Assembly (NCBI GenBank): GCA_905214225.1
Contig: CAJMLL010000031.1
Span: 1 to 28,527, forward strand
Source of the DNA: an uncultured bacterium
Lineage (GTDB): Bacteria > Bacillota > Clostridia > Peptostreptococcales > Anaerovoracaceae
Reading direction: 5' to 3'
DNA: 28,527 nt
Shown here: piece after piece, positions 964 to 14,287 of the stretch
How positions within the stretch are numbered: position 1 is the stretch's first letter
Layout of the letters: every line of letters begins with the position of its first letter
Notes under the pieces: model-generated
The model's input: the letters and a program-made list of their open reading frames with translations, nothing else
Told to the model about the DNA's origin: nothing
Databases searched by the model: none
Made by a program: the position numbers and the translations under genes

Positions 964-987
964 GGTATACTGTATTATAATCGCGTT
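964..987 (+). repeat. 24-bp element, left copy of a distant inverted pair
   Basis: The complement of 964-987 matches 15571-15594 at 23 of 24 positions, with the copies pointing towards each other 14.6 kb apart. Each contains the core ATACAGTATACC and the nine-base ATAATCGCG. Homology does not extend beyond the 24 bp on either side and no target-site duplication is seen. It may be an operator, a recombination site or the end of an old mobile element. Confidence 0.6.
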
Positions 988-1027
988 TGACAAATTCTGC
1001 TGGTCGAGATTTCCATACTAATCCGAG

Positions 1028-1438
1028 GGTTTCCCGACTCTCATTTCCTACAGTCGGGAAACCGGTCCTTTCACGGCAAATTCCCGAGCTTATTTTTCAG
1101 GACCTCGGGAAAATCAACTTAATCGTGTTTTTTCCCGAGCCTGCCAAAAGCAGCAATATACTCATATACGCCCAAATAAATATATATTATCTTATACACA
1201 TATTTATTCATATATTCTATTTAATAATCGCGATATTTTTACTATAAAATAAATATATCCCTCATGCATGAGACTCTCCCGAACTTCTGCATCTGGAAGT
1301 TCGGGAGACTAGCTTTAATAAGGTATTTTCCCGAAGGCTCTGCTGTCAAAAGTTCGGGAACACCCCCTGATATGAAAGAATTCCCGAACTGCGTGCAATA
1401 CGTCTCGGGAATTCCACATTTATAAGCTGTTTTCCCGA
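1028..1438. repeat. Ordered array of TTCCCGA / TCGGGAA inverted repeats around an AT-rich core
   Basis: Left half-sites (TTCCCGA, once CTCCCGA) start at 1031, 1081, 1132, 1276, 1328, 1381 and 1432. Right half-sites (TCGGGAA, once TCGGGAG) start at 1054, 1105, 1301, 1354 and 1405. Left to right within a pair is 16-19 bases, while right to the next left is exactly 20 bases in all five cases (1061-1080, 1112-1131, 1308-1327, 1361-1380, 1412-1431). Five pairs can fold into hairpins with stems of 7-13 bp: 1028-1063, 1081-1111, 1275-1308, 1328-1360 and 1378-1414. Paired positions change together: the base after CCCGA pairs as C-G, G-C, A-T and A-T in different units, and the outer pair is T-A or C-G. 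Left half-sites without a mate end each block. The sequences between the half-sites are unrelated. Confidence 0.85.
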
Positions 1439-1524: not shown

Positions 1525-1727
1525 ATATCAATCTATCAATCCGTCTATCTGCCCGTTAATCTGCCTTCTGCCCGTCGTTCTCTCTGAAACATCAAAAGCT
1601 GCCAACCGGCCTGTTTTCACCCCACCGACCGAGTCCTCGCCTTCCCTGCACCGGCCACCGGCCATCTGAAGTCACAAACAACGCCAGCCAAACTGTACAT
1701 TCTGCCGCCGCCACCTATAGGCACGAA

Positions 1728-1771
1728 AGCCGCCGGCCGGGCTGGCAATCTGCCTTTTCCGGCCGGCGGCT
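1728..1771 (-). terminator. Long GC-rich hairpin downstream of cysN
   Basis: AGCCGCCGGCC (1728-1738) and its complement (1761-1771) form an 11-bp perfect stem with a 22-base loop, about 230 bases past the cysN stop. On the minus strand it is followed only by TTTCG rather than a long T run. It could end the sulfur operon transcript or simply protect its 3' end. Confidence 0.4.
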
Positions 1772-1998
1772 CCTTGTGAAGGAATATGTTGAAGTATTGT
1801 AAATTGCATTGATAGGCCGGCAGCAGTGCTCTGACTGCGGCAGGATCAGCTGAACGCGACTGCTTCTCTTTCGCCTCGTCGGGAGGCTGATCGATCCTCA
1901 GCCGCAAAACTGTGTGTACCGCATCAGCTGCCCGGAGCCCTGCTCCGGCAGTCTGCTGCGTATGCTGGCTGTATGGCATAAAAGTAAATTATCTTCTC

Positions 1999-3675
1999 TT
2001 AAATTACCCAGTTATTGTATTCGATGGTCACGTTGGCATTGGTGATCTGGAAGATCTTCTGGGCGATTTCTGCGGCTGTCGCTTCATGCGCTGCTGCGCC
2101 GGAAGCTGCGCCATTTCCGCTCAGTTCGGACCACAGCTTATAGTGCTCGTCGGAGCTCAGGCTGTCGTCTGGCTCCTGGTCGCTGTCGAGGACAAGCAGG
2201 ACGATGATTCCTGTCTCTTTCAGGTGCTTCAGGACGTTGACATAGTCTTCACCCTCCTGTGGGTGATACAGATAGGTGTGGCGTCCGTTTCTGACCAGAT
2301 TGAACTCTGCCTCTTCAACGGCCTCCAGCGTGGAACCGTCTTCTCCCGGACGGAACTCGACGATGCCGGAAGTCTGCCAGTTCAGCGAACTTCTCATCTG
2401 ACGGGTTGCCTTTGGATGCTTCTTCTCCGACTGATCATTGATTTTTGTAACAATGCCGCAGGCGGAAGTCATGTGGCTGATACGGTCGATCAGGATCAGC
2501 TCGCCCTGGGTTCTGTGATCCTTGAACTCGGAGAGGATGATCGGCTCTGTAACAGCGATTTCACAGACAGCGATTTCATTCTTTTTCAGCGTGTCTGCGT
2601 TCTGCTTTTCGCCGGTGTTGATATCGATCTTGTACTTGATTTTTGTCAGGATTCCAGGAATCTTCTTGGTGCCAAGCTTGATCAGGAAGTTCTTTCCGAT
2701 GCTCAGCGACTGGTCGTCCATCCAGAGAAGTTCGGTCTCAAAGGAATCGGATGCTCTCAGGCCGCTTCCGGACTCCAGTACGCAGCCTCTGGATACGTCG
2801 ACTTCACGGTCCAGCTGGATGGTGACCGGCTGTCCGGTGACGGCGGACTGCTCCTCATGATCGGCAACGAGAATGCTCTTTACGTGTGCCTGCTCACCGC
2901 TTGGAAGGGAAGTCAGTTCATCGCCGACTTTCACGCTGCCGCATTCGATCTGGCCCTGGAAACCACGGAACTCGTGGCTCGGACGGCAGACACGCTGAAC
3001 CGGCATGTAGAAGCCCTTTTCTTCAGCAGCTGCGTCGCCCACATCGACCGTTTCCAGCTGGTGCAGAAGGGTCGGCCCCTTGTACCAGTCGAAATTTGTC
3101 GTCGGCTTGGTGATGTTATCGCCCTCGGTCGCGGAAACCGGGATAATCACAACGTCCTGCAGACCCAGCTCGTCTTTCAGCTCGCCGATCTGCTTTTCAA
3201 TCTCACGGAAACGGTTCTCGTCGTAGCCGACCAGATCCATCTTATTCACTGCGAAGATGAAGTGGCGGATGCCCATCAGAGCGCAGATTCTTGCGTGACG
3301 CTTGGTCTGGATCAGCACGCCCTGGGAAGCGTCGATCAGGATGACGGCCAGGTCTGCAAATGACGCACCGCAGGCCATGTTTCTGGTGTATTCCTCGTGA
3401 CCCGGTGTGTCCGCACAGATGAAGCTGCGGTTATCCGTCGTGAAGTAACGATATGCGACGTCGATGGTGATGCCCTGCTCACGCTCGGCAATCAGTCCGT
3501 CCAGCAGCAGAGAGTAGTCGATCTTTCCTCCGCGGCTTCCTACCTTGGAATCCAACTCCAGGGCATTTTTCTGATCTGCGTAGATCAGCTTGGCATCATA
3601 CAGCAGATGCCCGATCAGCGTGGATTTTCCGTCGTCCACACTTCCGCATGTAATAAATTTCAGTAAACCGCTCAT
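1999..3675 (-). CDS. cysN: Sulfate adenylyltransferase large subunit (GTPase) CysN
   Basis: This is the GTP-hydrolysing subunit of ATP sulfurylase, which with CysD makes adenylylsulfate (APS) from sulfate and ATP. All G-protein motifs are present: P-loop GSVDDGKS at residues 11-18, DTPGHEEY from residue 89, and NKMD at 144-147, followed by EF-Tu-like domains 2 and 3 to about residue 415. The protein is 558 residues, clearly longer than the usual 475 or so. The C-terminal 120-140 residues (for example NGRHTYLYHP near 463 and ETGIIVLLVL near 487) do not carry a P-loop, so this is not a CysNC fusion with a functional APS kinase. Its ATG shares one base with the TAA of cysD, so the two are translationally coupled. 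It is the last gene of the sulfur operon. Confidence 0.97.
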   Translation of the reverse strand: MSGLLKFITCGSVDDGKSTLIGHLLYDAKLIYADQKNALELDSKVGSRGGKIDYSLLLDGLIAEREQGITIDVAYRYFTTDNRSFICADTPGHEEYTRNMACGASFADLAVILIDASQGVLIQTKRHARICALMGIRHFIFAVNKMDLVGYDENRFREIEKQIGELKDELGLQDVVIIPVSATEGDNITKPTTNFDWYKGPTLLHQLETVDVGDAAAEEKGFYMPVQRVCRPSHEFRGFQGQIECGSVKVGDELTSLPSGEQAHVKSILVADHEEQSAVTGQPVTIQLDREVDVSRGCVLESGSGLRASDSFETELLWMDDQSLSIGKNFLIKLGTKKIPGILTKIKYKIDINTGEKQNADTLKKNEIAVCEIAVTEPIILSEFKDHRTQGELILIDRISHMTSACGIVTKINDQSEKKHPKATRQMRSSLNWQTSGIVEFRPGEDGSTLEAVEEAEFNLVRNGRHTYLYHPQEGEDYVNVLKHLKETGIIVLLVLDSDQEPDDSLSSDEHYKLWSELSGNGAASGAAAHEATAAEIAQKIFQITNANVTIEYNNWVI

Positions 3676-4586
3676 TAGAAATACCCCTCTCTCTTACGCT
3701 TCTCCATACTTCCTGCTCCGCCGTCTTTATCGATGACACGGCTGGTACGCTCAGATTCAACGGCGCTGAGCGTCTCCTGGACGATCTTGTCCAGGGTGTC
3801 TGCCTCTGACTCGATTCCGCCGGTCAGAGGATAGCATCCAAGCGTGCGGAAACGGATTTTCTTATGCATGATGTCTTCTGGCTTCAGATTCAGGTGGTCA
3901 ATGATTCTGTGGTCGTCTACCATGATCAGATTTCCTTCGTAATTGATGCATGGACGTTCTTTCGCGAAGTAGAGCGGCACGATCTCAATGTGCTCTCTCT
4001 GGATGTACTGCCAGATGTCTTTCTCCGTCCAGTTGGAGATCGGGAACACACGCATGCTCTCTCCCTTGTTGATTTCTGTATTATAGAGTTTCCACATCTC
4101 CGGACGCTGGTTTTTCGGGTCCCAGGCCTGCGCAGAATTTCTGAAGGAGAAGATTCTCTCCTTGGCTCTCGATTTTTCCTCATCACGGCGGCCGCCTCCG
4201 AAGGCTGCTGTAAAGCCGTAATATGTCAGGGCCTGTTTCAGCGCCTGCGTCTTCATAATATCCGTGTAAGAAGCGCCATAGTCGAACGGATTGACCCCGG
4301 CTTTGACGCCTTCCTCATTCTTCCATTCCAGCATTTCCAGGCCGTATTTCTTCGCCTGCTCGTCTCTGAACTTGATCATTTCATGGAATTTCCAGGTGGT
4401 GTTGACATGCAGGAACGGGAACGGCGGCTTTTCCGGATAGAACGCCTTCAGTGCAAGATGCAGCATGACGGAGCTGTCCTTTCCGATTGAATAGAGCATT
4501 ACCGGTTTCTCGCATTCCGCGGCAACCTCACGGATGATGTAGATCGCTTCTGCTTCCAGAGCGTCCAGATGTGATAAATTACTCAT
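3675..4586 (-). CDS. cysD: Sulfate adenylyltransferase small subunit CysD
   Basis: This is the catalytic subunit of ATP sulfurylase, a PP-loop ATP pyrophosphatase-type enzyme that adenylates sulfate. The PP motif [19 protein letters not shown] lies near residue 33. [30 protein letters not shown] and [16 protein letters not shown] are the usual CysD blocks. With the start at 4586 the protein has 303 residues, matching E. coli CysD (302). An in-frame upstream extension to 4724 is rejected because AAGGAG sits at the right distance from 4586 and homology begins there. The 177-bp gap to aprB holds no gene and no clear terminator. Confidence 0.97.
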
Positions 4587-4763
4587 TGCTGACTCCTTCT
4601 GTCTCCGGCTTTCCGGAGCTTCCTTCATATTCCTTCTGGACAAAAGCCACACGCGCAAGGGATTTCCCTGCCTCTGCGGGCTCCGCCCGGTGCCGGCTGA
4701 AGCCTCTGGCCAGACCATTTCCATTCCGGCCGCTTCAATTTCCGGCTGTCCGATCCTCCCGGA

Positions 4764-5078
4764 TCAGTACTGGTTTGCGTTTTTCCGGTTGACGGTAATC
4801 ACCGTCTCTTCCCCGGATGGACGATGCACAATCCAGTTGTATAAATCTCCGTCCTTTTCGATCCGCATGGCAGATCCGGCTCCTCCGATGTCTGCTCCCA
4901 GGAACAGGCTGATGGCCGATACCGGACAAACCTTCATGCAGGATGTACATCCCCAGCAGTCTTCCAGAATCCGGATTTCTGCTTTTTTCTCTTCATTCAG
5001 GCGGATCAGGTTTCCCGGACAGGCTTCCGTGCAGCGTCCGCAGCCGATACATGTTTTCTTATCGATCTGTATGCTCAT
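4764..5078 (-). CDS. aprB: APS reductase beta subunit (ferredoxin-like) AprB
   Basis: This is a 104-residue protein with two [4Fe-4S] cluster motifs, CIGCGRCTEACP (about residues 11-22) and CWGCTSCMKVCP (about 41-52). A short beta-rich tail follows, ending near VITVNRKNANQY, as in the beta subunit of adenylylsulfate reductase. It should pass electrons to the FAD of AprA for reduction of APS to sulfite and AMP. Its start overlaps the end of aprA by 20 bases, typical of a tight two-subunit pair. A generic ferredoxin is less likely given this position. Confidence 0.9.
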   Translation of the reverse strand: MSIQIDKKTCIGCGRCTEACPGNLIRLNEEKKAEIRILEDCWGCTSCMKVCPVSAISLFLGADIGGAGSAMRIEKDGDLYNWIVHRPSGEETVITVNRKNANQY

Positions 5079-6771
5079 AACTGCCTCCTTTCACCAGATC
5101 CCGGTAGATGATCTCGATCTTCCCGTCCTTCAGTCTGGAATTGACGTAACGGAGGCCTTTATCGGACTGCTCCGGGTAATCCGCGTTTTCTCCGAATGTA
5201 TGCCAGCGGGTTTCTTTTCTTGCCCGCATGTGGGCGATCAGTGTGCGGCAGACGGTCATGCGTTCTCTGACCTCATAGACATGAAGCAGATCGAACATGT
5301 CTTCTGCAGGAAGTGTTTTAACCAGTTTCTGCAGTTTTTTGATTTCCTCATCGGCTTTCTTCAGCCGGCTTTCGTTGCAGCGGTAATCTGTACGGATGCC
5401 TCCCGCATACTCGTCCATGACTTTCTGCATGGCTTCCTCCAGCTGATGCCAGTCTAAAATGCCGGCCGGCTGATTCAGATGATCCTGCATTTCCCGGATC
5501 GCGGAAGCGGCTTCCTTTTCATTAATCTCCTGCTCCGAACCGTTATCAGAGTCTTTTTTGTCCCTGAACCTTCTGGCGATGGATTCTGCGGCGATTTCCC
5601 CTTCCGCAAGGGCTCCCGTTACGTACTTCTGAGGCGCGCCCCCCGCTGCGTCTCCGGCTGCGTAGAGCCCGTGTACGGTGGTTTCCCTTGAGGTGTCGAC
5701 CCAGAAGCCGCTGGCAGTGTGGCCGCCGACTACATACGGTTCTGTGCCCTCGACCTCGACATTCTGCTCAGACGGTCCCTTTCCGGATTCCAGCCATTTC
5801 AGGGTCTGCGACGGCGCCATGTTCAGATAGGCCTTGTACAGATCCTCTTCCTGCTGCTTTGTGATTCCGGAAGTGGCCAGGTAACAAGGTCCGCGCCCCG
5901 CCCGGTTCTCTTCCACGGTTCCGTAGATTCTCTGCGGAGTAGTCAGGCCGTATTTCGTTTCGTAAACCTCGCCCTTGGAGTTAACCTGCTTTGCGTGAAC
6001 CCCCTGGGCGATGGTTCCCGTCGGCGCGATGGTGTCCTTACAGCGCAGCGCCACAAAACGGTTTTCAAACGTGGTCATCTCTGCGCCGGCCCGGATTCCC
6101 ATGGAAAATCCCGCGCCGGTATTAAACGGCGGATACCACATCTTATGACGGGAGAATCCCGGGTTGTTCGGCCGGTACAGTCCTGCCGCGCCCCCTGTGG
6201 CGATCAGCACGGCTTTCGCGTCGATGTCATAGGCAGTCTTTTCTCTTACGGAGAAACCGACCGCTCCGGTAACGGAAGTCTTCCCATCGGCTTCCTCTGT
6301 TTTCAGATCCGTGATATTCACGTGGTTCAGAACCGTGACATTCGGCTGGGCTTCCGCCCCTTTTGCCAGCAGCGGTTTGATGTTCTCCCCGTTGATCTTC
6401 ACGTTTCTCCAGCCCCGGGTGACGTACTTTCCGTTTTCATCCTTCAGGATGACCAGACCGCGGCGCTCCAGGTCTTCGGTGACCTCATTCAGCCGTTCGG
6501 AAATCGTCATCAGAAGGTCGTCTCTGACGATGCCCTCGGCGTCTTTTCTCGCATATTCCACGTAATCGGAAGGGGTGTGCCCTTCCGAAATATATGCGTT
6601 CAGTGCATTGACTCCCGCCGCGAGACATCCGCTGCGGATGATGTTGGCTTTCTCCGCGATGAGGACCTTCAGCTTTTCGCCGCCCAGTTTGATGGCGGCG
6701 TAACAGCCTGCCGTTCCTCCTCCGATAATCAGCACATCGGTTTTGATTTTCTTTATCTCCAGGTTTTCCAT
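5059..6771 (-). CDS. aprA: Adenylylsulfate reductase alpha subunit AprA (FAD)
   Basis: This is a flavoprotein of the fumarate reductase/succinate dehydrogenase superfamily that reduces APS to sulfite and AMP. The dinucleotide-binding motif IIGGGTAGCYAAIKL starts near residue 15. AprA-typical blocks include GVNALNAYISEGHTPSDYVEYARKD given here by position only (about residues 53-77), VLIATGGAAGLYRPNN (near 186) and the second FAD block GLYAAGDAAGGAPQKYVTGA. At 570 residues it is shorter than the roughly 650-residue subunits of dissimilatory sulfate reducers. There are no qmo or dsrAB genes nearby, so an assimilatory role is inferred. The ribosome site is weak (AAAGAG). The gap to chrA is only 49 bases. 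Confidence 0.93.
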   Translation of the reverse strand: MENLEIKKIKTDVLIIGGGTAGCYAAIKLGGEKLKVLIAEKANIIRSGCLAAGVNALNAYISEGHTPSDYVEYARKDAEGIVRDDLLMTISERLNEVTEDLERRGLVILKDENGKYVTRGWRNVKINGENIKPLLAKGAEAQPNVTVLNHVNITDLKTEEADGKTSVTGAVGFSVREKTAYDIDAKAVLIATGGAAGLYRPNNPGFSRHKMWYPPFNTGAGFSMGIRAGAEMTTFENRFVALRCKDTIAPTGTIAQGVHAKQVNSKGEVYETKYGLTTPQRIYGTVEENRAGRGPCYLATSGITKQQEEDLYKAYLNMAPSQTLKWLESGKGPSEQNVEVEGTEPYVVGGHTASGFWVDTSRETTVHGLYAAGDAAGGAPQKYVTGALAEGEIAAESIARRFRDKKDSDNGSEQEINEKEAASAIREMQDHLNQPAGILDWHQLEEAMQKVMDEYAGGIRTDYRCNESRLKKADEEIKKLQKLVKTLPAEDMFDLLHVYEVRERMTVCRTLIAHMRARKETRWHTFGENADYPEQSDKGLRYVNSRLKDGKIEIIYRDLVKGGSYEHTDR

Positions 6772-6820
6772 AACTCTTTATCCCTTGTAACGTTCATTTT
6801 TGCCGGCAAAAAGTAATGCG

Positions 6821-8341
6821 CTAGACGGTGAGCAGCAGTGCGCCCGTCAGAGCGGATGCCGCAATCAGAATACCATTTCCCGCATGTTTTCTGTTCATGA
6901 GGAAGAGGTTGGCTGCGGTGAGGACTGCAGTGATGATCACGGTGGCTGCTGCGCTGTTTCCGAGCGCTGCGCCGGTGTCGATGTTGGTTCTGATCATGGT
7001 CAGGGTTACGTTCAGCAGAAGTCCGCTGATGATCGGACGGATCCAGCGGCTGATCTCGCGGAATACTGTGACTTCCTCAAACTCGGACAGCAGCCAGCGG
7101 ATCCAGCAGAATACGAGGCCGGAAGCCGATACGCTGACGCCCAGGCATGCCAGAGCGGTCAGCCAGCCGCCTGCAGCGGTTCCGCTTACGTCCAGGCCTG
7201 TGAAATAGCCGATGCCGGTCAGGATCTTGCAGAGGATGGATCCCGGAAGCACATTGGCTGCCGGAACCAGAGTTCCGTAGAAATCATGGGCGCTGACCAT
7301 GCCGTGTCCGACGAACATGCCGTCTGCCACGGACAGGTAGGCATCTCCGCCGCCGAAAGAAATCAGCGAAGAAAGAATTCCCTTTCCCAGAAGAAGTGCA
7401 GAACCTTTAATGTAGAGCAGTGCCGGAAGTGATGTAACCGTAAGCAGAAGCAGCCATGCACCGGTCTGCTTAAGCGGTGTTTTCCAGCTGATCTCTGCCT
7501 GTGCATCGATGCGGCTGTGCTTTCTGTCATTCTGGATGCTTTCCGCAATTCCCTTCACGGAAAGGAGCACCATGAACAGATACAGCGCGACACGCAGCAT
7601 GCCCGGAACGGCAGCTCCCGTCCTTCCAGTGAAAACCAGGTAAAGGACCGCGGTAATAATGCAGACTGTGCTCTTCAGCTTTGTGAACCTGCATCCGGTA
7701 TAGAAAATACCGAAGAAGGCCAGTCCCAGAACCTCAACGGTGGACAGGCTGAGTACCGGATTTCCGCTGATTTCCAGAATCCCGAACAGATTTTTCCCAA
7801 AGGTCAGCAGGAAGACGGCAATCATAATCAAAAGTGAAACTCTTCCCGTCTTCTTCCCCTCCAGGGAAGATGTCTTCTGTGTTTTTGCCGCATAATTGAT
7901 CAGAAGACTGCAGATGAACGCACCCAGGCCCACGGACAGATAACGGACAAAGTTCAGTGACTTGACACTGGATCCGGAGAAAACCGTCAGAAGAAGGACG
8001 GTGAGAAGAGCGCCCGGTGCTGCCATCGCGGCAGCGGCCAGAAGCATTCCTTTCAGGCCGAATGTGGTCAGTCCGTTTCCAGCGGCAATCTCAACCGGAA
8101 GAGCGCCAGGAGTCACGCAGGCTGCAATGACGTCCTCATCGTAGTCTTTCTTGGAAATGATGTTCTGCTCCTGCACAACTTCTTCTTCGATCACCGGAAT
8201 CAGTGCGCTTCCGCCGCCGAATCCGATCACGCCGATTTTCAGCATGGAGAGAATCATCTTCCAGAATCTGCGTGATTCAGAACGGGCAGGAACCTGTACG
8301 GTCTGCTCTGCCTTCATTGTCTGTTCTGCTGTCTGACTCAT
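6821..8341 (-). CDS. chrA: CHR-family (chromate transporter-like) anion transporter, probably sulfate uptake
   Basis: This is a 506-residue membrane protein with two CHR domains. The first has GVIGFGGGSALIPVIEEEVV near residues 37-56, and the second has ISFGGGDAYLSVADGMFVGH near residues 323-342. About ten hydrophobic segments follow these motifs. The family is named for chromate efflux, but chromate is a sulfate analogue and several members sit in sulfur operons. Here it is the only transporter in a sulfate assimilation operon, so sulfate import is the likely role (inference). The start at 8341 is chosen because AAGGGGAA lies 7 bases upstream; an in-frame extension to 8422 is not hydrophobic and lacks a site. 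It is the first gene after a probable terminator, so it heads the second half of the pathway. Confidence 0.9.
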   Translation of the reverse strand: MSQTAEQTMKAEQTVQVPARSESRRFWKMILSMLKIGVIGFGGGSALIPVIEEEVVQEQNIISKKDYDEDVIAACVTPGALPVEIAAGNGLTTFGLKGMLLAAAAMAAPGALLTVLLLTVFSGSSVKSLNFVRYLSVGLGAFICSLLINYAAKTQKTSSLEGKKTGRVSLLIMIAVFLLTFGKNLFGILEISGNPVLSLSTVEVLGLAFFGIFYTGCRFTKLKSTVCIITAVLYLVFTGRTGAAVPGMLRVALYLFMVLLSVKGIAESIQNDRKHSRIDAQAEISWKTPLKQTGAWLLLLTVTSLPALLYIKGSALLLGKGILSSLISFGGGDAYLSVADGMFVGHGMVSAHDFYGTLVPAANVLPGSILCKILTGIGYFTGLDVSGTAAGGWLTALACLGVSVSASGLVFCWIRWLLSEFEEVTVFREISRWIRPIISGLLLNVTLTMIRTNIDTGAALGNSAAATVIITAVLTAANLFLMNRKHAGNGILIAASALTGALLLTV

Positions 8342-8465
8342 GATCGTTCCCCTTCCGGTAAATTGAACCAATAACTTTCTGTTCCCCTGAATTGAAAGGT
8401 CCGCCCGGGATGCGCTCGTCACACTTTATCCTTTCATCCTGCTGAGCGGACATTTTATTACCACA

Positions 8466-8479
8466 ATTCTAGTAGGAAT
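8466..8479. promoter_or_regulatory. Possible operator, CTAGTAGG-containing dyad upstream of chrA
   Basis: ATTCTAGTAGGAAT is an imperfect palindrome just downstream of the likely -10 box of the chrA promoter. The same CTAGTAGG octamer occurs in the promoter of the sulfur LysR gene (13936-13944), there as the perfect dyad CCTAGTAGG. A common sulfur repressor, for example an Rrf2/CymR-like protein, is a guess; the two sites alone are weak evidence. Confidence 0.35.
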
Positions 8480-8610
8480 ATATCTTTATTAGTTATTATC
8501 ATACCGCATTCTGTCCAGTTTGGATAATACGGATTCCTGATAGCCGGTTCTATGTTTTTACTTATGACGGGAAAACCAGTGACGGATGACAGGGAAACAG
8601 AAGGACAGCA

Positions 8611-8654
8611 GGAGGCCGCCCACCTGTTCATCTGAACCCGGTGCGGCGGCCTCC
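8611..8654 (-). terminator. Hairpin terminator after the tusA-like gene
   Basis: GGAGGCCGCC (8611-8620) pairs with GGCGGCCTCC (8645-8654), and an inner GGTTCA/TGAACA pairing extends the fold. It lies 22 bases past the stop of the tusA-like gene. The following minus-strand bases are T-rich (TGCTGTCCTTCTGTTT) but not a clean T run. It probably separates metY-to-tusA from chrA-to-cysN. Confidence 0.65.
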
Positions 8655-8675
8655 CATAAAAGACAGCGGATACTC

Positions 8676-8933
8676 CTACTCTCCAACCTTTCTCACGATC
8701 AGATCGTAAGTTCCGTCTTCATTATCGATCAGTTTCAGAATCTGGTGTCCCTCTTCCTTTACGCTGCGCGGAACGTTCTGCACCGGCTCGCCGTCGTTCA
8801 TGTGAACAGAAAGGATCTGTCCCTCGTCCAGCTCCTCCAGCGCAACCTTTGCCTTAACAAAAGTTACCGGGCAGACAACGTCTGTAATATCCACGGTGTC
8901 ATCAATCTTTATTCCTGCTTTTTCCTCAGCCAT
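8676..8933 (-). CDS. TusA-family sulfur carrier/relay protein
   Basis: This is an 85-residue protein of the TusA (SirA/YedF) fold. The key cysteine is C21 in DVVCPVTFVKAKVALEEL, followed by the usual strand and helix pattern and a GHQIL segment. Family members pass persulfide sulfur between partners using a CPxP motif. Here the second proline is replaced by threonine (CPVT), a variant also common in anaerobes. It lies 20 bases downstream of the sulfite reductase gene, so it probably carries sulfur from that enzyme or towards HcyS (inference). The ribosome site AAGGGG and the ATG at 8933 are clear. Confidence 0.88.
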   Translation of the reverse strand: MAEEKAGIKIDDTVDITDVVCPVTFVKAKVALEELDEGQILSVHMNDGEPVQNVPRSVKEEGHQILKLIDNEDGTYDLIVRKVGE

Positions 8934-8953
8934 TTCAATCCCCTTTTCTCTTA

Positions 8954-9895
8954 CTACTTCTTCTGCAGATCCGGACGAAGCTTCCAGTCCGTCAGTTCCA
9001 GCGGTTTGGAGGCCTGTGCATGTGCCTCTTCCTCGCTTGCTGCATAAACCTTCCGGATCATCGCGTCAAACTTATCCTCGCCTTCTCTTGCGATCGCAAA
9101 CTGCAGACGGTCTCCCGGCTGTGCGTGATCATGGAAGAACTGGATCGTCGCATCGCACATCTGAATCAGCTTATCGTGACTCTCTACAAACGGTGTGAGC
9201 TGACGTCCCTTATGGAAGTGATTTCCGTACATTCCGCCAAAGCTCATGATGTATCCCGGATGCTCCTCATAAGCATCCATCGGACATGACTTTGCGCAAC
9301 GGCCGCAGTATGTGCACTTATCCTGGTCGATGGAAATCTTTCCGTCCTCCAGCGAAACCGCGCCCTCACGGCAGGCTTTTACACAGACACCGCACTGAAT
9401 GCATTTATCCGGAATCCACTCAACACGCTCCGCGCCTTTGATTCCGATATCGTTTTCCTCAGTCTTCAGACAGTTATTCTGGCATCCGGTGATACCAAAC
9501 TTGAACTTTCCCGGAAGCTCCTTCGCAAAATATCTCTGGTCAATTTCCTCTGCCAGCTCATAAGTGTAAATGCATGCACTCGGACAGGTATCCGCACCCT
9601 GACAGGCTGTCGTTGTACGGACACGCGGGCCGCAGACAGAAGGCTCTACGTTATACTTTGCCAGCTCTTTCTTGATCTCCTCGATATCCTCCAGCTTCAT
9701 ATATGGAATTTCCAGGGACTGACGCGCTGTCAGATGTACATAGCCCTGGCCGTATTTCTCTGCGACCTTAGAAACTCCAAGCAGCTGTTCCTCCGTCATC
9801 TTTCCGCCGATGACATGAACTCTCAGTGCAAACCGGTTCTTCTGCTTCTGGCGCATCCATCCGCCTTTTTTCAATGCTGCATAATCTGTTGCCAT
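8954..9895 (-). CDS. Small siroheme-type sulfite (nitrite/sulfite) reductase with two ferredoxin clusters
   Basis: This enzyme reduces sulfite to sulfide with six electrons. It is a 313-residue protein. The N-terminal half holds the ferrodoxin-like domain with YVHLTARQSLEIPY near 52-65. The siroheme-[4Fe-4S] ligands follow: C98-x5-C104 and C138-x3-C142 (GCQNNC). A ferredoxin insert with CIQCGVCVKAC (165-175) and CTYCGRCAKSC (194-204) comes next, then the C-terminal siroheme domain. This architecture is that of the compact DsrA/AsrC-like reductases of clostridia and methanogens. The start at 9895 has AAAGGAA in front; the in-frame extension to 9940 is rejected. Its place between hcyD and tusA fits sulfide supply for the HcyS route. 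Confidence 0.93.
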   Translation of the reverse strand: MATDYAALKKGGWMRQKQKNRFALRVHVIGGKMTEEQLLGVSKVAEKYGQGYVHLTARQSLEIPYMKLEDIEEIKKELAKYNVEPSVCGPRVRTTTACQGADTCPSACIYTYELAEEIDQRYFAKELPGKFKFGITGCQNNCLKTEENDIGIKGAERVEWIPDKCIQCGVCVKACREGAVSLEDGKISIDQDKCTYCGRCAKSCPMDAYEEHPGYIMSFGGMYGNHFHKGRQLTPFVESHDKLIQMCDATIQFFHDHAQPGDRLQFAIAREGEDKFDAMIRKVYAASEEEAHAQASKPLELTDWKLRPDLQKK

Positions 9896-9945
9896 ATTCG
9901 GTTCCTTTCTCTTCTTCCGTGACAAAAAGCAAACGGCCAAGGGGA

Positions 9946-10368
9946 TCAGCCCTCAACGATCTGCAAATCTTCCTTTGTCGATACCTTATCCTCAACGTGG
10001 AAGGAATTCAGCACCGGATGACTGTCATCCATCAATGATAATATTAGATAACTTGCTTTGCCGTCAAATGCCAGACGGATATCTTCCTGAGAAGATCTGG
10101 ACGGGCTCTCCGGATGAGAATGCCAGTTTCCCAGCGGCTTCATGCCGTTTTCTCTCATGTCCTTTACAGCCTTCAGCTGCTCCTTCGGATCCAGAGAAAA
10201 ATGCTCGTTGCTGTGGTCCAGATTGGTCAGAAGGTAAACCTTCTGAATTTCTCTGCTGCCGTCTTCATGGTCAATTCCTCCAATCAGGCCGCAGGCTTCA
10301 TCCGGTTTTTCTTTTCTGGCATGCTCCAGTATTTTTTTATAATCGCTTTTTTTCAATGTGATTTTCAT
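9946..10368 (-). CDS. hcyD: JAMM/M67 metalloprotease, sulfur-carrier processing (HcyD)
   Basis: This is a 140-residue Mov34/JAB1-type zinc peptidase. The catalytic Glu is E24 in DEACGLIGG. The zinc motif is H83-x-H85-x7-S93-x2-D96 (WHSHPESPSRSSQED). Relatives such as Mec+ (Mycobacterium) and HcyD (Wolinella succinogenes) remove the residue that caps the Gly-Gly end of a ThiS-like carrier, or release amino acid from it. The carrier hcyS two genes upstream ends in GGGR, so removal of a capping residue is expected. The start at 10368 begins the homology; the extension to 10425 overlaps hcyF and is rejected. Confidence 0.88.
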   Translation of the reverse strand: MKITLKKSDYKKILEHARKEKPDEACGLIGGIDHEDGSREIQKVYLLTNLDHSNEHFSLDPKEQLKAVKDMRENGMKPLGNWHSHPESPSRSSQEDIRLAFDGKASYLILSLMDDSHPVLNSFHVEDKVSTKEDLQIVEG

Positions 10369-10384
10369 TTCACTCTTGCCTCTT

Positions 10385-11203
10385 TTAATTTTGTCCCGGC
10401 TTCCACTCGCAGGCTGGCTGCTCATAATCGATCAGTTTGGTAATGGTCGGATGATCGGAGCATACAGCGCATCCTTCTCCGCGCGGCGGAAGGTTGATGG
10501 TGTGGAATTTCATTTTCAGTCCGTCAAAGGTCAGAAGCTTTCCGACCAGAAGATCTCCGGCTCCGGTCAGATACTTGACAGCTTCCAGGGCCTGCAGAGA
10601 TCCGATGGTTCCGGCCATCGCGCCGATGACTCCGGCGGACTTGCAGGTCGGAATTGCGTCCTTCGGCGGCATGGTCTTGAATACGCAGCGGTAACACGGT
10701 CCCTCGTGTGGAATGACGGTCATCAGCTGGCCGCTGAAACGCAGGATTCCGGCGTGAGAGAATGGCTTGTTGGCCATGACGCAGGCATCGTTGATCAGGA
10801 ATTTGGCCGGGAAGTTGTCTGTTCCGTCCAGAATGAAATCATAATCCTTGATGATGTCCAGGATGTTGCTGCTGTCGATGAACTGATGGTAGGTGACAAC
10901 CTCGACATCCGGGTTGATGGCACGCATCGTTTCTGCAGCGGATTCCACCTTCGGACGGCCGACATCCGCCGTTGTGTGAATGACCTGACGCTGAAGATTG
11001 GACAGGTCCACAACATCTGCATCGACGATACCGATTTTTCCTACTCCTGCTGCTGCAAGATATAGAGCGGCAGGTGCTCCGAGGCCGCCCGCGCCGATGA
11101 TCAGAACACTTCCGTTCAGGAGCCTTTTCTGGCCCTTGACGCCGATTTCTTTCAAAATGATATGTCTGGAATAACGCTCCAGCTGTTCATTGGTGAAACC
11201 CAT
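10385..11203 (-). CDS. hcyF: E1-like sulfur-carrier adenylyltransferase/sulfurtransferase (HcyF, MoeB/ThiF family)
   Basis: This is a 272-residue ThiF/MoeB-type enzyme. It starts with RYSRHIILKEIG (10-21), then the ATP-binding loop GAGGLG (37-42), DADVVDLSNLQRQ (61-73), the Asp-loop ILDGTDNFPAKF (124-135), zinc cysteines C170-x2-C173 and C245-x2-C248, and a conserved cysteine in PTCKSAG (C187). It adenylates the C-terminal glycine of a ThiS-like carrier and helps convert it to a thiocarboxylate. Position beside hcyS, hcyD, metY and sulfite reductase matches the homocysteine route of Wolinella. Its ATG overlaps the TAA of hcyS by one base. Confidence 0.9.
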   Translation of the reverse strand: MGFTNEQLERYSRHIILKEIGVKGQKRLLNGSVLIIGAGGLGAPAALYLAAAGVGKIGIVDADVVDLSNLQRQVIHTTADVGRPKVESAAETMRAINPDVEVVTYHQFIDSSNILDIIKDYDFILDGTDNFPAKFLINDACVMANKPFSHAGILRFSGQLMTVIPHEGPCYRCVFKTMPPKDAIPTCKSAGVIGAMAGTIGSLQALEAVKYLTGAGDLLVGKLLTFDGLKMKFHTINLPPRGEGCAVCSDHPTITKLIDYEQPACEWKPGQN

Positions 11204-11409
11204 TATCTTCCACCTCCCATGAAGTACAGGAACTCAACGACATCGCCGTCGTGCAGCTGCTGTGTGTCAAAATCCGCGCTCTTTGCGAACTCTTCGTTGA
11301 CGGAAACGCTGACGTACACCGGCGTCTCGACATTTTCCTGTGCGATGAGTTCGGAAATCGTGATTCCGTCCTTAACTTCCTTCTGGTCTCCTGAAACTGT
11401 GATCTTCAT
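11203..11409 (-). CDS. hcyS: ThiS/MoaD-like sulfur carrier for homocysteine synthesis (HcyS)
   Basis: This is a 68-residue beta-grasp protein with the ubiquitin-like carrier pattern: DGITISELI, VYVSVSVNEEF, and LHDGDVVEFLYFMGGGR at the C-terminus. It ends in GGGR rather than a free Gly-Gly, so at least the arginine must be cut off before activation, which explains the neighbouring JAMM protease. As a thiocarboxylate it would donate sulfur to O-acetylhomoserine through MetY. AGGAGG precedes the ATG at 11409 at good spacing. A role in thiamine or molybdopterin synthesis is less likely, as no thi or moa genes are near. Confidence 0.88.
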   Translation of the reverse strand: MKITVSGDQKEVKDGITISELIAQENVETPVYVSVSVNEEFAKSADFDTQQLHDGDVVEFLYFMGGGR

Positions 11410-11466
11410 GATTTTTCCTCCTGAACCTTATGTTTCTCTATTTCTGAATTGAATCCTTGTTATCTC

Positions 11467-12702
11467 TTACTGGTCCGCCTGCTTTACGGCCTGCGTGAAA
11501 TCTTCAATCAGGTCTTCCGGATTTTCGATTCCCACGCTGACCCTCACCGTATCTTCAAAGACACCGGCGGCTTCTTTCTGTTCTTCTGTATTATGAATAA
11601 ATATCGTGGAAGAAGGATGAATGGCCAGCGTCCTGAGATCGCCGATGTTGCTGGCGATCACCACGCACTTCAGCGCATCCAGAATGCGGAATGCCTTTTC
11701 CTTTGATCCCGCACGGAAAGTCAGGATGCCTCCGCCTCTTCCGCGGAACTGCTTTTCCACAATGCTCCGACAGGGATGTTCCTCAAGGCCCGGATAACAG
11801 ACCCTGGAAATTCCCGGAAGCTTCTCAAGAGCCTCCGCAAGTTTCTGCGCATTGCTGCAGATTCTCTCCATCCTCAGCCCCATCGTTTCCATGCCGACGA
11901 TATTCATGTAAGCATTTGCCGGCGCCAGACAGCAGCCCAGGTTTTCCCCGAGATCCGTCCGGATCCGCACTAAATACGCCATCGGGCCGTACCTCTTAAA
12001 CGGCGCCAGTGCCGGATACCGCTTTTCATCCCAGCGGAAATGCGTGCTGTCCACAATCACTCCGCTGATGGAATTCCCCCCGCCATTAATATATTTAGAG
12101 GAAGAATGAACAACAATATCTGCACCAAGCGAAATCGGATTGACCAGATACGGCGTCGCGGTTGTATTATCCACCACAAGCGGAAGTCCGTGCGCATGAG
12201 CCGTTTCCGCCACGGACTGAATATCCATGACATCCAGCCCCGGATTTCCAATCACTTCTCCGTAAATGACCCGTGTCTTCTCATTAATCAGCGGCTCGAT
12301 CGTTTCCGGAGTCAGTTCCTTCACAAACCTGGTGCGGATACCAAAATTCTTAAAATCGTCGAACAGACCGATTGTCCCGCCGTACAGGCCGCTGCAGGCA
12401 ATAATCTCATCGCCGCTGCTGAGCATATTCAGAAGCGACAGCGCTACCGCAGCCATTCCAGAAGAACAGGCCGCTGCTCCGCCGCCGCCTTCCAGCTCAT
12501 TAATCCGCTGCTCAAAGGCAGAAACCGTCGGATTTCCGACCCGGGTGTAGGCATAGCCCATCGCCTTGTGTGAGAACACCGCCGCGTGCTTCTCTGCAGA
12601 CTCAAACTGAAATGCGCTGACCTGACTGACCGGCGGAAGCGTCGCACCGTCCGCATACGGCTTTACCGACTTCCCGTGCAGAAGTTTCGTATCAAAATTC
12701 AT
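11467..12702 (-). CDS. metY: O-acetylhomoserine sulfhydrylase MetY (PLP)
   Basis: This is a 411-residue Cys/Met-metabolism PLP enzyme that makes homocysteine from O-acetylhomoserine and a sulfur donor. Family blocks are AYTRVGNPTVSAFEQRI (51-67), the cofactor-binding CSSGMAAVALSLL, VVDNTTATPYLVNP, and the PLP lysine K203 in VVHSSSKYINGGGNSISG. It is the first gene of the sulfur operon, with AAGGAGG ahead of the ATG. The 57-bp gap to hcyS and shared strand suggest co-transcription, and in Wolinella the partner of HcyS is also a MetY. Cystathionine synthase activity is possible but less likely in this context. Confidence 0.95.
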   Translation of the reverse strand: MNFDTKLLHGKSVKPYADGATLPPVSQVSAFQFESAEKHAAVFSHKAMGYAYTRVGNPTVSAFEQRINELEGGGGAAACSSGMAAVALSLLNMLSSGDEIIACSGLYGGTIGLFDDFKNFGIRTRFVKELTPETIEPLINEKTRVIYGEVIGNPGLDVMDIQSVAETAHAHGLPLVVDNTTATPYLVNPISLGADIVVHSSSKYINGGGNSISGVIVDSTHFRWDEKRYPALAPFKRYGPMAYLVRIRTDLGENLGCCLAPANAYMNIVGMETMGLRMERICSNAQKLAEALEKLPGISRVCYPGLEEHPCRSIVEKQFRGRGGGILTFRAGSKEKAFRILDALKCVVIASNIGDLRTLAIHPSSTIFIHNTEEQKEAAGVFEDTVRVSVGIENPEDLIEDFTQAVKQADQ

Positions 12703-12785
12703 GCTTCCTCCTTTCCTTTTGCTTTTTGTCTATAAAACAATACCATCTTACCACTGCATCTGTATACATGGTTATATGAACTCTC

Positions 12786-12822
12786 GATGCCTTGTTATAA
12801 CCCGGGATTATAACGAAGCATC
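12786..12822. terminator. Inverted repeat spanning the LysR stop, between LysR and metY
   Basis: GATGC-x-TT-x-GTTATAA on one side pairs with TTATAAC-x-AA-x-GCATC on the other (13 of 16 positions), around the loop CCCGGG. It covers the last codons and stop of the LysR gene and lies about 85-115 bases upstream of metY. No T run follows. It may be a terminator for LysR, or the operator to which LysR binds at the metY promoter. Confidence 0.45.
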
Positions 12823-13713
12823 CTGGTAGTGCTCCAGCTTATCAAGATAAATCTCGCCCAGCCGCGAAAGCTTGGCGCCCTTATGCCTGAGATATCCGAT
12901 CGTCATCTGCTCCGATTCTTTCAGCGGAATCGCCGCATAATCCGTACCATTCAGCTCCTCACTGATGATGCCCGAACACAGGGTGTAGGCATTCAGCCCC
13001 ACCATGAGATTCAGCATCGTTGCCCGGTCATCGCCCTTGATCAGCTTCTTATACTCATACGTACTCTTCATCTCTTCCGCAAGATAGAAAGAACTGTGAC
13101 TGCCCTGCTCGAAAGCCAGGCACGGATAATCCTGCAGATCCTCCATCGACAAAATCTTCCGCCCGGCAAGAGGATGTCCTTTCCATAAATATACGTAAGT
13201 GTCACAATCCAGAAGCGGCTCAAACACCAGATCATTCTCCCGGAACATCTGCTTCAGCACCGCCTCGTTGAACTCCGAAAGATAGAGAATCCCAAGCTCA
13301 CTCTTGAAATTGTGGACATTGCGGATAACCTGATACGTCGTCGTCTCATGGATCGCAAACTCATACTCCGCCATGCCGACTTCCTTCACCAGCTCCACAA
13401 AAGCCTTGACCGCAAAGCTGTAATGCTGGCAGGACACAGAAAACTTCTCCTTGCTGTCCTGTTCCAGATAACGCTTCTCCAGAAGCGCATACTGCTCAAT
13501 GACCTGACGCGCATAACCCAGAAACTCTTCCCCGTCCGGCGTCACCTTGATGCCCCGGTTCGACCGCAGAAAAATCGTGATTCCCGCTTCTTCCTCGATC
13601 TCCCTGACCACCGCCGAAAGATTCGGCTGCGAAACATAGAGCTGCTTCGCGGCCTCATTCATCGAGCCCACATCCGCAATCGTAATAATCTGCCTCAGCT
13701 GCTGCAGCGTCAT
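12808..13713 (-). CDS. LysR-family regulator, probably of the sulfur operon
   Basis: This is a 301-residue LysR-type activator. The winged helix-turn-helix is at the N-terminus (MTLQQLRQIITIADVGSM..., with AAKQLYVSQPNLSAVVREIE near 19-38), and the periplasmic-binding-like effector domain covers about 90-295. It lies directly upstream of metY on the same strand and is therefore likely to be its regulator, as CysB, CysL and MetR are elsewhere; the effector is unknown. The ATG at 13713 is preferred to the TTG at 13719 because GGGAGGG lies 8-9 bases upstream of the ATG. A TATAAT box (complement of 13922-13927) suggests a leader of about 200 bases. Confidence 0.9.
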   Translation of the reverse strand: MTLQQLRQIITIADVGSMNEAAKQLYVSQPNLSAVVREIEEEAGITIFLRSNRGIKVTPDGEEFLGYARQVIEQYALLEKRYLEQDSKEKFSVSCQHYSFAVKAFVELVKEVGMAEYEFAIHETTTYQVIRNVHNFKSELGILYLSEFNEAVLKQMFRENDLVFEPLLDCDTYVYLWKGHPLAGRKILSMEDLQDYPCLAFEQGSHSSFYLAEEMKSTYEYKKLIKGDDRATMLNLMVGLNAYTLCSGIISEELNGTDYAAIPLKESEQMTIGYLRHKGAKLSRLGEIYLDKLEHYQDASL

Positions 13714-13921
13714 CCGCAATCCCTCCCTTCATGATTTTCCCTCCCGGGATCTACTTCCCAGAGCCTGTTTTCATGATCTTCCAGCCCTTCCTGGCATCTC
13801 GGCCTTTCCAATATTCCCGGTCCCTCCGATTCACCCAGACTTTCAAATTTTCTTGTTTTCCAGGATCCACCCGGCTTTCCCGACTGATCACTGACCATTT
13901 ATAAACCCGGTAAACCGTAGT

Positions 13922-14245: not shown

Positions 14246-14287
14246 GCCCTGCCGAAAGGAAATTCATTACTTTCCTTTCGGCAGGGC
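14246..14287. terminator. 17-bp perfect inverted repeat behind the PrsW-like gene
   Basis: GCCCTGCCGAAAGGAAA (14246-14262) is followed by its exact complement at 14271-14287, with an 8-base loop. It starts 34 bases past the stop of the PrsW-like gene. No T run follows on either strand, so it may be a weak or factor-assisted terminator or a 3'-end stabiliser. Confidence 0.6.

What the first reader, a model, noticed from the sequence alone, without database searches (positions are those of the whole stretch)
1028..1438. Phased array of alternating TTCCCGA and TCGGGAA half-sites with an invariant 20-bp linker
Twelve 7-bp half-sites alternate in orientation. The distance from TCGGGAA to the next TTCCCGA is exactly 20 bases in all five cases, while the other gap varies from 16 to 19. 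Left half-sites repeat about every 51 bp (five helical turns). Bases flanking the core change in a paired way (C-G, G-C, A-T; outer T-A or C-G), so dyad or hairpin structure is conserved rather than sequence. The intervening sequences are unrelated. The array is split in two blocks around a 140-bp AT-rich core. Possible roles: a protein-binding lattice (partition site, replication or condensation centre), a multi-hairpin non-coding RNA, or a guide-like array of short alternating repeats, loosely like TIGR arrays, though no tas or cas gene is in the window.
Basis: seen in the sequence. Interest (0 to 1): 0.85.

Follow-up and report, generated by a model that had tools for sequence, protein, structure and literature searches.

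The report
Phased dyad array around AT-rich core
A stretch of bacterial chromosome carries a real, highly ordered cluster of short mirror-image DNA sites around a very AT-rich centre, most likely a landing array for an unknown DNA-binding protein; related bacteria that could be checked lack it, and what it does is not known.

Summary
Ten exact and two one-base-variant half-sites lie in window 1031-1438, alternating except across the core. No 7-mer exceeded 6 copies in 30,551 shuffles. The R-N20-L spacing is exactly 20 in 5 of 5 cases. A 13th, degenerate half-site at 1004 also keeps N20. The array is thus two blocks of three 34-bp dyads, plus an orphan L4, around a 137-bp core with the window's least stable DNA. 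A+T in the N20 spacers is symmetric about the dyad and helically phased; the L-R gaps show nothing. This favours DNA bent around a protein dimer. Against it, L-R arms are more complementary than expected, with one compensatory change, so hairpin, RNA or palindromic-repeat readings stay open. A Nitrospirales genome has equally dense TTCCCGA/TCGGGAA clusters of dispersed hairpins. The array is absent beside the four nearest full-length cysN loci reached and two tRNA-Ala(GGC) loci, and from 397 sampled family genomes by pattern. A TIGR-like guide array is not supported. Best reading: a lineage-specific protein-binding array resembling iteron origins or centromeres, member of neither; role unproven.

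The parts
1004..1037 (.). Dyad unit 1: TCGAGAT (R0, degenerate) - N20 - TTCCCGA (L1)
   Evidence: R0 found here, 2 mismatches, exact N20
1054..1087 (.). Dyad unit 2: TCGGGAA-N20-TTCCCGA
1105..1138 (.). Dyad unit 3: TCGGGAA-N20-TTCCCGA
1139..1275 (.). AT-rich core, 26% GC; holds the lowest-GC 100 bp (from 1155, 17%) and least stable 60 bp (from 1199) of the window
   Evidence: duplex energies recalled
1192..1200 (+). TTATACACA, a DnaA-box-like 9-mer (consensus recalled); 1 in the window, 0.56 expected, so not significant by itself
1276..1282 (+). Orphan variant half-site CTCCCGA (L4), no R at N20; pairs with R4 in a 13-bp perfect stem
1301..1334 (.). Dyad unit 4: TCGGGAG-N20-TTCCCGA
1354..1387 (.). 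Dyad unit 5: TCGGGAA-N20-TTCCCGA
1405..1438 (.). Dyad unit 6: TCGGGAA-N20-TTCCCGA
1028..1063 (.). L1-R1 perfect inverted repeat, 12-bp arms, 12-nt loop
1275..1308 (.). L4-R4 perfect inverted repeat, 13-bp arms, 8-nt loop, with the compensatory T-to-C / A-to-G change
1378..1414 (.). L6-R6 perfect inverted repeat, 10-bp arms, 17-nt loop
724..798 (-). tRNA-Ala (GGC), neighbour on the left; the array lies on its 5' side
1999..3675 (-). cysN-like gene (sulfate adenylyltransferase large subunit), neighbour on the right; the array is about 560 bp beyond its 3' end

Best explanation
The array is a double-stranded DNA site for an unknown protein that binds as a dimer (or higher oligomer) to the 34-bp dyad TCGGGAA-N20-TTCCCGA, bending the 20-bp spacer so that its AT-rich centre faces the protein. 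Six such dyads, in two blocks of three, flank a 137-bp easily melted core. Shown: the sites, their number, the fixed N20, the symmetric and helically phased A+T of the N20, the melting-prone core. Inferred: that a protein binds at all, that neighbouring dyads are filled cooperatively into one nucleoprotein complex, and that the complex acts on DNA (replication start, segregation or condensation) rather than on a nearby promoter. The layout of sites / AT-rich core / sites makes an origin-like or centromere-like site, perhaps left by a mobile element, my preferred role; the role is much less certain than the binding.
For: Array far beyond chance. N20 invariant in 5 of 5 plus degenerate R0, while L-R gaps spread over 16-19. 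N20 A+T counts per column of 6 sequences: 5 4 2 1 3 3 3 4 5 6 6 5 4 2 2 2 4 3 5 6. Mirror correlation 0.657, p 0.007 (0.545, p 0.025 without R0); 10.25-bp cosine centred on the dyad, 0 of 20,000 shuffles; still 0 of 3000 when maximised over period and phase, and p at most 0.0002 at 10.25 bp after dropping the end columns. L-R gaps (5 sequences, 16 central columns) give p 0.35 and 0.34. Spacer identity 104 of 300 against 79 in shuffles, p 0.002; without R0 67 of 200 against 53, p 0.018. Core holds the least GC-rich 100 bp and least stable 60 bp of the window. The densest TTCCCGA/TCGGGAA cluster among the 23 viral stretches (L031) lies just 3' of a primase-helicase-like gene.
Against: No binding protein, replication or partition gene found among the window ORFs scanned. 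Complementarity beyond the 7-mers and the one compensatory change favour the L-R pairing (L-R 16 against 8.0 permuted, 4 of 120; R-L 8 against 6.2, 34 of 120). L4 has no R partner at N20. The A+T statistic was chosen after looking at the columns, and the shuffles assume six independent spacers; common descent of the units would weaken it. Both flanking genes run in one direction, so there is no strand switch as at a chromosomal origin. The array is on the 5' side of the tRNA, not the 3' side where islands usually integrate (recalled). No relative with the array was found, so nothing shows selection across species. In a Nitrospirales genome, clusters of 10 alternating half-sites of the same sequence are made by dispersed hairpin repeats, so density and alternation alone prove no binding array.
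Confidence: 0.47

Rival explanations
1. A decayed tandem/palindromic repeat cluster of the REP/BIME or small dispersed repeat kind, kept palindromic by replication slippage, without present function.
For: L-R perfect palindromes; about 51-bp period; weak residual likeness of the N20 sequences. In a Nitrospirales genome (G003) the same half-sites form dense clusters: 10 alternating sites in about 410 bp of L033 and 10 in about 430 bp of L034, made of dispersed CATTCCCGA-type hairpins, some at N20 from each other. A near relative of the window's organism (G750) has another non-coding hairpin array with different, tandem units.
Against: Not dispersed within the window: one cluster in 28.5 kb and 5 other exact half-sites. 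Here no repeat body surrounds the 7-mers, as it does in G003, and L-R gaps show no likeness (p 0.09 and 0.08). Exact N20 is not expected from decay.
Confidence: 0.2
2. A structured non-coding RNA, or precursor, made of tandem L-R hairpins (stems 8-13 bp) joined by 20-nt linkers.
For: Both strands fold much better than shuffles (z -7.12 and -6.98). L-R arms extend beyond the 7-mer more than permuted (4 of 120), with a compensatory change at L4/R4.
Against: Promoter-like sites 3 against 2.3 expected; one terminator-like site against 1.6 expected, at 624-640, outside the array. No Rfam family at gathering score but the tRNA; weak matches only below it. The AT-rich core splits it. The arms are interchangeable and the predicted folds mix long-range and local pairs. 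Helical A+T phase of the linkers has no evident reason in RNA.
Confidence: 0.2
3. An operator cluster (or titration decoy) for a transcription factor acting on the tRNA-Ala promoter or the sulfur-assimilation genes.
For: Non-coding position; two LysR-type genes and a PAS-HTH gene lie in the window.
Against: The array is beyond the 3' end of cysN and upstream of tRNA-Ala, more than 11 kb from those regulators. No other dyad in the window within 2 mismatches; of exact half-sites only one (13877) lies upstream of a regulator gene. Six dyads over 430 bp is more than an ordinary operator.
Confidence: 0.1
4. A guide array like TIGR (dual-repeat or stem-loop type).
For: Alternating short repeats with non-repeated interiors; a TIGR stem-loop array is described from a gut microbiome contig (PMC12045711, section 9 read).
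Against: No Nop-domain gene among 28 window ORFs scanned with Pfam or in 6 near genomes, though only 1 kb left of the array is visible. L-R interiors of 16-19 nt cannot hold two 8-12-nt spacers with boxes. No exact viral match for 3 of 11 gap sequences, the three that were tested.
Confidence: 0.03

Closest known systems
F plasmid sopC / parS(F) centromere (PMC9178275, passages: twelve 43-bp repeats, each with a 16-bp inverted repeat bound by a ParB dimer)
   Same: Array of short inverted-repeat units at a period of 43 bp (here about 51), each fit for a dimer
   Different: The whole 43-bp unit is a repeat and the inverted repeat is compact; here only 7-mers recur, half-sites are 20 bp apart, there is an AT-rich core, and no parA/parB was found
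SaPI-type and SCC origins with initiator iterons (PMC7581432, passages; the two-blocks-around-an-AT-rich-region layout of SaPIbov1 is recalled, its papers were not held)
   Same: Short repeats in a short non-coding stretch, here with an easily melted region
   Different: There the origin sits just downstream of its helicase gene; here no such gene was found
RepA_N iterons (PMC7145576, passages: inverted repeats converging on a poly-A tract, 8-9 bp in pSK41 and pTZ2162)
   Same: Inverted half-sites converging on an AT-rich centre
   Different: Those are direct repeats of an iteron at a RepA_N replicon; here the spacer sequence is hardly conserved and no repA was found
pSM19035 parS heptads for Omega (PMC9499535, passages)
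   Same: 7-bp sites in mixed orientation forming a centromere
   Different: Heptads there are contiguous; arrays interrupted by a gap fail to activate the ATPase fully
TIGR arrays (PMC12045711, section 9 and passages)
   Same: Alternating short repeats or tandem stem-loops with variable interiors
   Different: Spacer lengths, no Nop protein found, no terminator at the end
REP/BIME-like dispersed palindromes (recalled; a REPIN paper was seen only in the listing)
   Same: Short palindromes in alternating orientation; dense clusters possible (G003)
   Different: No conserved repeat body here; one cluster in the window

Membership tests
Iteron-type replication origin (SaPI / RepA_N like) | Repeated initiator sites next to an AT-rich melting region | tested here: met
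   Layout only: two blocks of three dyads around a 137-bp, 26% GC core with the window's least stable 60 bp; that the sites bind an initiator is not tested
Iteron-type replication origin (SaPI / RepA_N like) | Cognate initiator gene adjacent | tested here: not met
   No initiator or helicase family among 31 window ORFs scanned; only 1 kb is visible on the left side
Plasmid-type centromere (parS/sopC/parC) | Array of repeated sites fit for a dimer | tested here: met
   Layout only: six dyads; binding not tested
Plasmid-type centromere (parS/sopC/parC) | Partition NTPase and adaptor genes in cis | tested here: not met
   None among 31 window ORFs scanned
Chromosomal oriC | Several DnaA boxes and dnaA/dnaN-type neighbours (recalled) | tested here: not met
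   One TTATNCACA, 0.56 expected; no such genes among the ORFs scanned
TIGR-Tas | Adjacent Nop-domain protein | tested here: not met
   None among 28 window ORFs scanned with Pfam; 0 of 6 near genomes with PF01798, while 4 of 14 control genomes ring
TIGR-Tas | Units with two 8-12-nt spacers between box motifs | tested here: not met
   L-R interiors 16-19 nt, in L4-R4 largely self-complementary; definition from PMC12045711
TIGR-Tas | Array transcribed and processed | not testable with these tools
   No RNA data
Known Rfam RNA | Match at gathering score | tested here: not met
   Only the tRNA; sub-threshold sRNA41 24.7 bits against 45, E 0.22, and two weaker
REP/BIME dispersed repeat | Many copies over the genome | tested here: inconclusive
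   One cluster in 28.5 kb; the window's own genome is not held

The most novel reading that the evidence does not exclude
A new class of chromosomal nucleoprotein-assembly site in bacteria of the Clostridia kind: wide dyads (7-20-7) with a helically phased, bendable spacer, in two symmetric blocks around a melting core, whose half-site sequence turns over between species together with an unknown cognate protein.
Probability: 0.2. Interest if true: 0.75.

Novelty: new variant of a known kind. Interest (0 to 1): 0.5.

Why it matters
If the array is a protein-assembly site, it is an ordered one with no known binder, and it differs from the centromeres and iteron origins compared here in its wide dyad with fixed N20 and little-conserved spacer. 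It would give a direct handle, a DNA bait, to fish out a new DNA-organising or replication protein. If it is only a decayed palindrome cluster, it still shows how fast such arrays come and go between related genomes.

Tried and rejected
Same half-sites elsewhere. The three-half-site pattern in genome contigs gave 30 loci over many phyla. In one search none of the 30 fetched stretches shows this regular array; the densest are L008 and L028 (8 sites in 600 bp each, irregular). But the genome behind L009 (Nitrospirales, G003) holds clusters of 10 alternating sites (L033, L034). One Oscillospiraceae MAG (L019) has L-19-R-20-L between ORFs of one strand, though long ORFs of the other strand cover it; it may be chance. 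Viral contigs: 1 locus, and 23 stretches with a 6-mer version, of which only L031 is dense (11 sites in 450 bp, the next 6). Exact unit: 0 of 61 genomes. Three-half-site pattern: 0 of 397 genomes sampled from one family.

Kinship. The tool tells no names or kinship for G genomes; that G528 and G749-G753 are the nearest group is my reading of the order. The named CysN relatives are mixed (Anaerovoracaceae 77%, Eubacterium sp. 78%, Lachnospiraceae 72%), so the window's family is not settled.

Synteny. The operon up to cysN is kept in G528 (DNA 69-77%) but downstream of cysN there is neither tRNA nor array in the 19 kb fetched. The same holds for G812, G767, G758 (CysN 75, 73, 70%) and G639 (68%, partial) in 10-20 kb each. 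The aminotransferase of the left end (Pfam PF00155) has close relatives in 7 of 61 genomes, none beside a tRNA or array within 1.5 kb, two of the seven cut by a contig end. tRNA-Ala(GGC) of G749 and G753 has no array within 1.5 kb; the third hit, G752, is a CGC tRNA, and 3 of 6 genomes gave no hit.

Units with up to 2 mismatches against the reversed-pattern control, forward counts: G528 17/12, G749 9/8, G750 10/6, G751 25/7, G752 6/5, G753 7/8, G001 11/3. G751 and G001 exceed the control; the places listed do not cluster, but the list was cut.

Generic alternating 7-mer detector over about 1.6 Mb of G528, G750, G751 and G752: one other array, in G750, of a tandem kind. Blastn of 800-1800: 4 plasmid records at E 0.08-0.9, no phage record at E up to 1. 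Literature: 218 papers hold both 7-mers, of which I saw 20 titles and abstract starts and opened none; the listings named no such array. That is the whole basis for saying I saw none in print.

Dropped without a call: a CsrB-like sponge (loops read by eye). Integration at the tRNA 3' end was rejected because the array is on the 5' side.

Full report
What is there. Between tRNA-Ala(GGC) (724-798, minus) and the end of cysN (1999-3675, minus) lies about 1.2 kb without a recognised gene; the ORFs 987-1247 (+) and 1617-1979 (-) have no Pfam match. Inside it stand ten exact and two one-base-variant 7-mers TTCCCGA (L) and TCGGGAA (R). R to the next L is 20 bp in 5 of 5 cases; L to the next R is 16, 17, 18, 19, 17. 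A thirteenth, degenerate R (TCGAGAT, 1004) stands again exactly 20 bp before L1. With it, the left block reads R-L, R-L, R-L and the right block L4, then R-L, R-L, R-L. Between them lie 137 bp with 26% GC, holding the lowest-GC 100 bp and the least stable 60 bp of the 28.5-kb window.

Chance. Four exact dyads with gaps 15-25 against 0.00 expected. Ten copies of one 7-mer/complement in 820-1990 against a maximum of 6 in 30,551 shuffles. The five equal gaps fall just on the R-L class: 1 in 252.

Which pairing matters? Two lines disagree. For R-N20-L: fixed spacing; block ends; and the N20 sequences, which share more than shuffles (104 of 300 matches against 79, p 0.002; 67 of 200 against 53, p 0.018 without R0) and show A+T that is mirror-symmetric about the dyad (p 0.007; 0.025 without R0) and helically phased (0 of 20,000 shuffles). 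The phase survives removal of the end columns (p at most 0.0002 at 10.25 bp) and a search over period and phase (0 of 3000). The L-R gaps show none of this. I chose the statistic after seeing the columns, and common descent of the units would inflate it. For L-R: arms extend beyond the 7-mers (16 bases against 8.0 permuted, 4 of 120), while R-L arms do so less (8 against 6.2, 34 of 120), and the variant pair L4/R4 (CTCCCGA/TCGGGAG) changes on both sides. I read this as a DNA array whose operators are R-N20-L, with L-R palindromy either secondary (slippage-made) or used for cooperative contacts. That is inference.

RNA. Both strands of 985-1460 fold well below shuffles (z -7.12, -6.98), as any array of interchangeable palindromes would. 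Promoter-like sites are at background and the only terminator-like site in 480-2100 is at 624-640, outside the array. Rfam gives the tRNA at gathering score and three weak matches below it.

Relatives. CysN proteins of 90% and 82% exist, but I could not reach their contigs. The nearest genome reached, G528 (80%), shares the operon at DNA level but not the array. G812, G767, G758 and G639 lack it beside cysN too. Pattern searches: exact unit in 0 of 61 genomes, three half-sites in 0 of 397. The aminotransferase of the left end has close relatives in 7 of 61 genomes, none beside an array or tRNA within the 1.5 kb seen. Two tRNA-Ala(GGC) loci, in G749 and G753, have no array. So the array belongs to the window's own lineage, or its half-sites change quickly. 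About 1.6 Mb of DNA from near genomes, searched without regard to sequence, gave one other alternating array, in G750, made mostly of 63-bp tandem GCACCGC hairpin units; its units are alike, so it is another kind.

A warning against over-reading. In a Nitrospirales genome (G003) the very same half-sites form clusters of 10 alternating sites within about 410-430 bp (L033, L034). There they are arms of dispersed, conserved hairpin repeats with mostly 9-bp loops. Dense alternation alone therefore does not prove a binding array; the fixed N20 and the missing repeat body are what set the window apart.

What it works like. Short binding sites around a melting core recall satellite and RepA_N origins and plasmid centromeres (passages seen in PMC7145576, PMC7581432, PMC9178275, PMC9499535). 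By chance or not, the one dense TTCCCGA/TCGGGAA cluster among 23 viral stretches, L031, ends next to a 678-aa primase-helicase-like gene. Membership fails: no initiator, partition or Nop gene among 31 window ORFs scanned (28 of them with Pfam), and one DnaA-like box (0.56 expected). TIGR arrays (PMC12045711, section 9 and passages) need two 8-12-nt spacers per unit and a Nop protein: neither was found.

Verdict. Real, ordered, unexplained, so far seen in one lineage. Most likely a DNA site for an unknown oligomeric binder; its role (replication, segregation, condensation) is open. Confidence 0.47.

Noticed in passing
L095 1084-1450 (genome G750): Another non-coding hairpin array: GCACCGC-3-GCGGTGC hairpins in mostly 63-bp tandem units, GCGGTG-to-CACCGC linker 24 in 5 of 6 cases and 23 in one, linkers alike with TTTCCACAACTT or a variant in most.
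   Followed up: partly
L031 250-550 and L028 5640-5920: Dense TTCCCGA/TTCGGGAA cluster just 3' of a primase-helicase-like gene in a viral contig; the same site spacing occurs in an Aquariibacter contig: a candidate phage origin.
   Followed up: partly
L033-L037 (Nitrospirales genome G003): Dispersed CATTCCCGA...TCGGGAATG hairpin repeats in dense alternating clusters (up to 10 half-sites), some at N20 from each other.
   Followed up: partly
window 1728-1771: Perfect 13-bp inverted repeat with an 18-nt loop 3' of cysN, possibly the operon's terminator but without a T run.
   Followed up: no
window 14246-14287: Perfect 17-bp inverted repeat with an 8-nt loop in the gap between the LysR-type gene and a PrsW-like protease gene.
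   Followed up: no
window 965-975 and 1512-1522: 11-bp perfect inverted repeat (GTATACTGTAT / ATACAGTATAC) outside both ends of the array; not tested for significance.
   Followed up: no
window 1999-13719: Sulfur-assimilation cluster: CysN- and CysD-like, adenylyl-sulfate reductase alpha and a ferredoxin, chromate-transporter-like, sulfite-reductase-like, JAB-domain, ThiF-family and O-acetylhomoserine sulfhydrylase-like proteins, LysR regulator.
   Followed up: no
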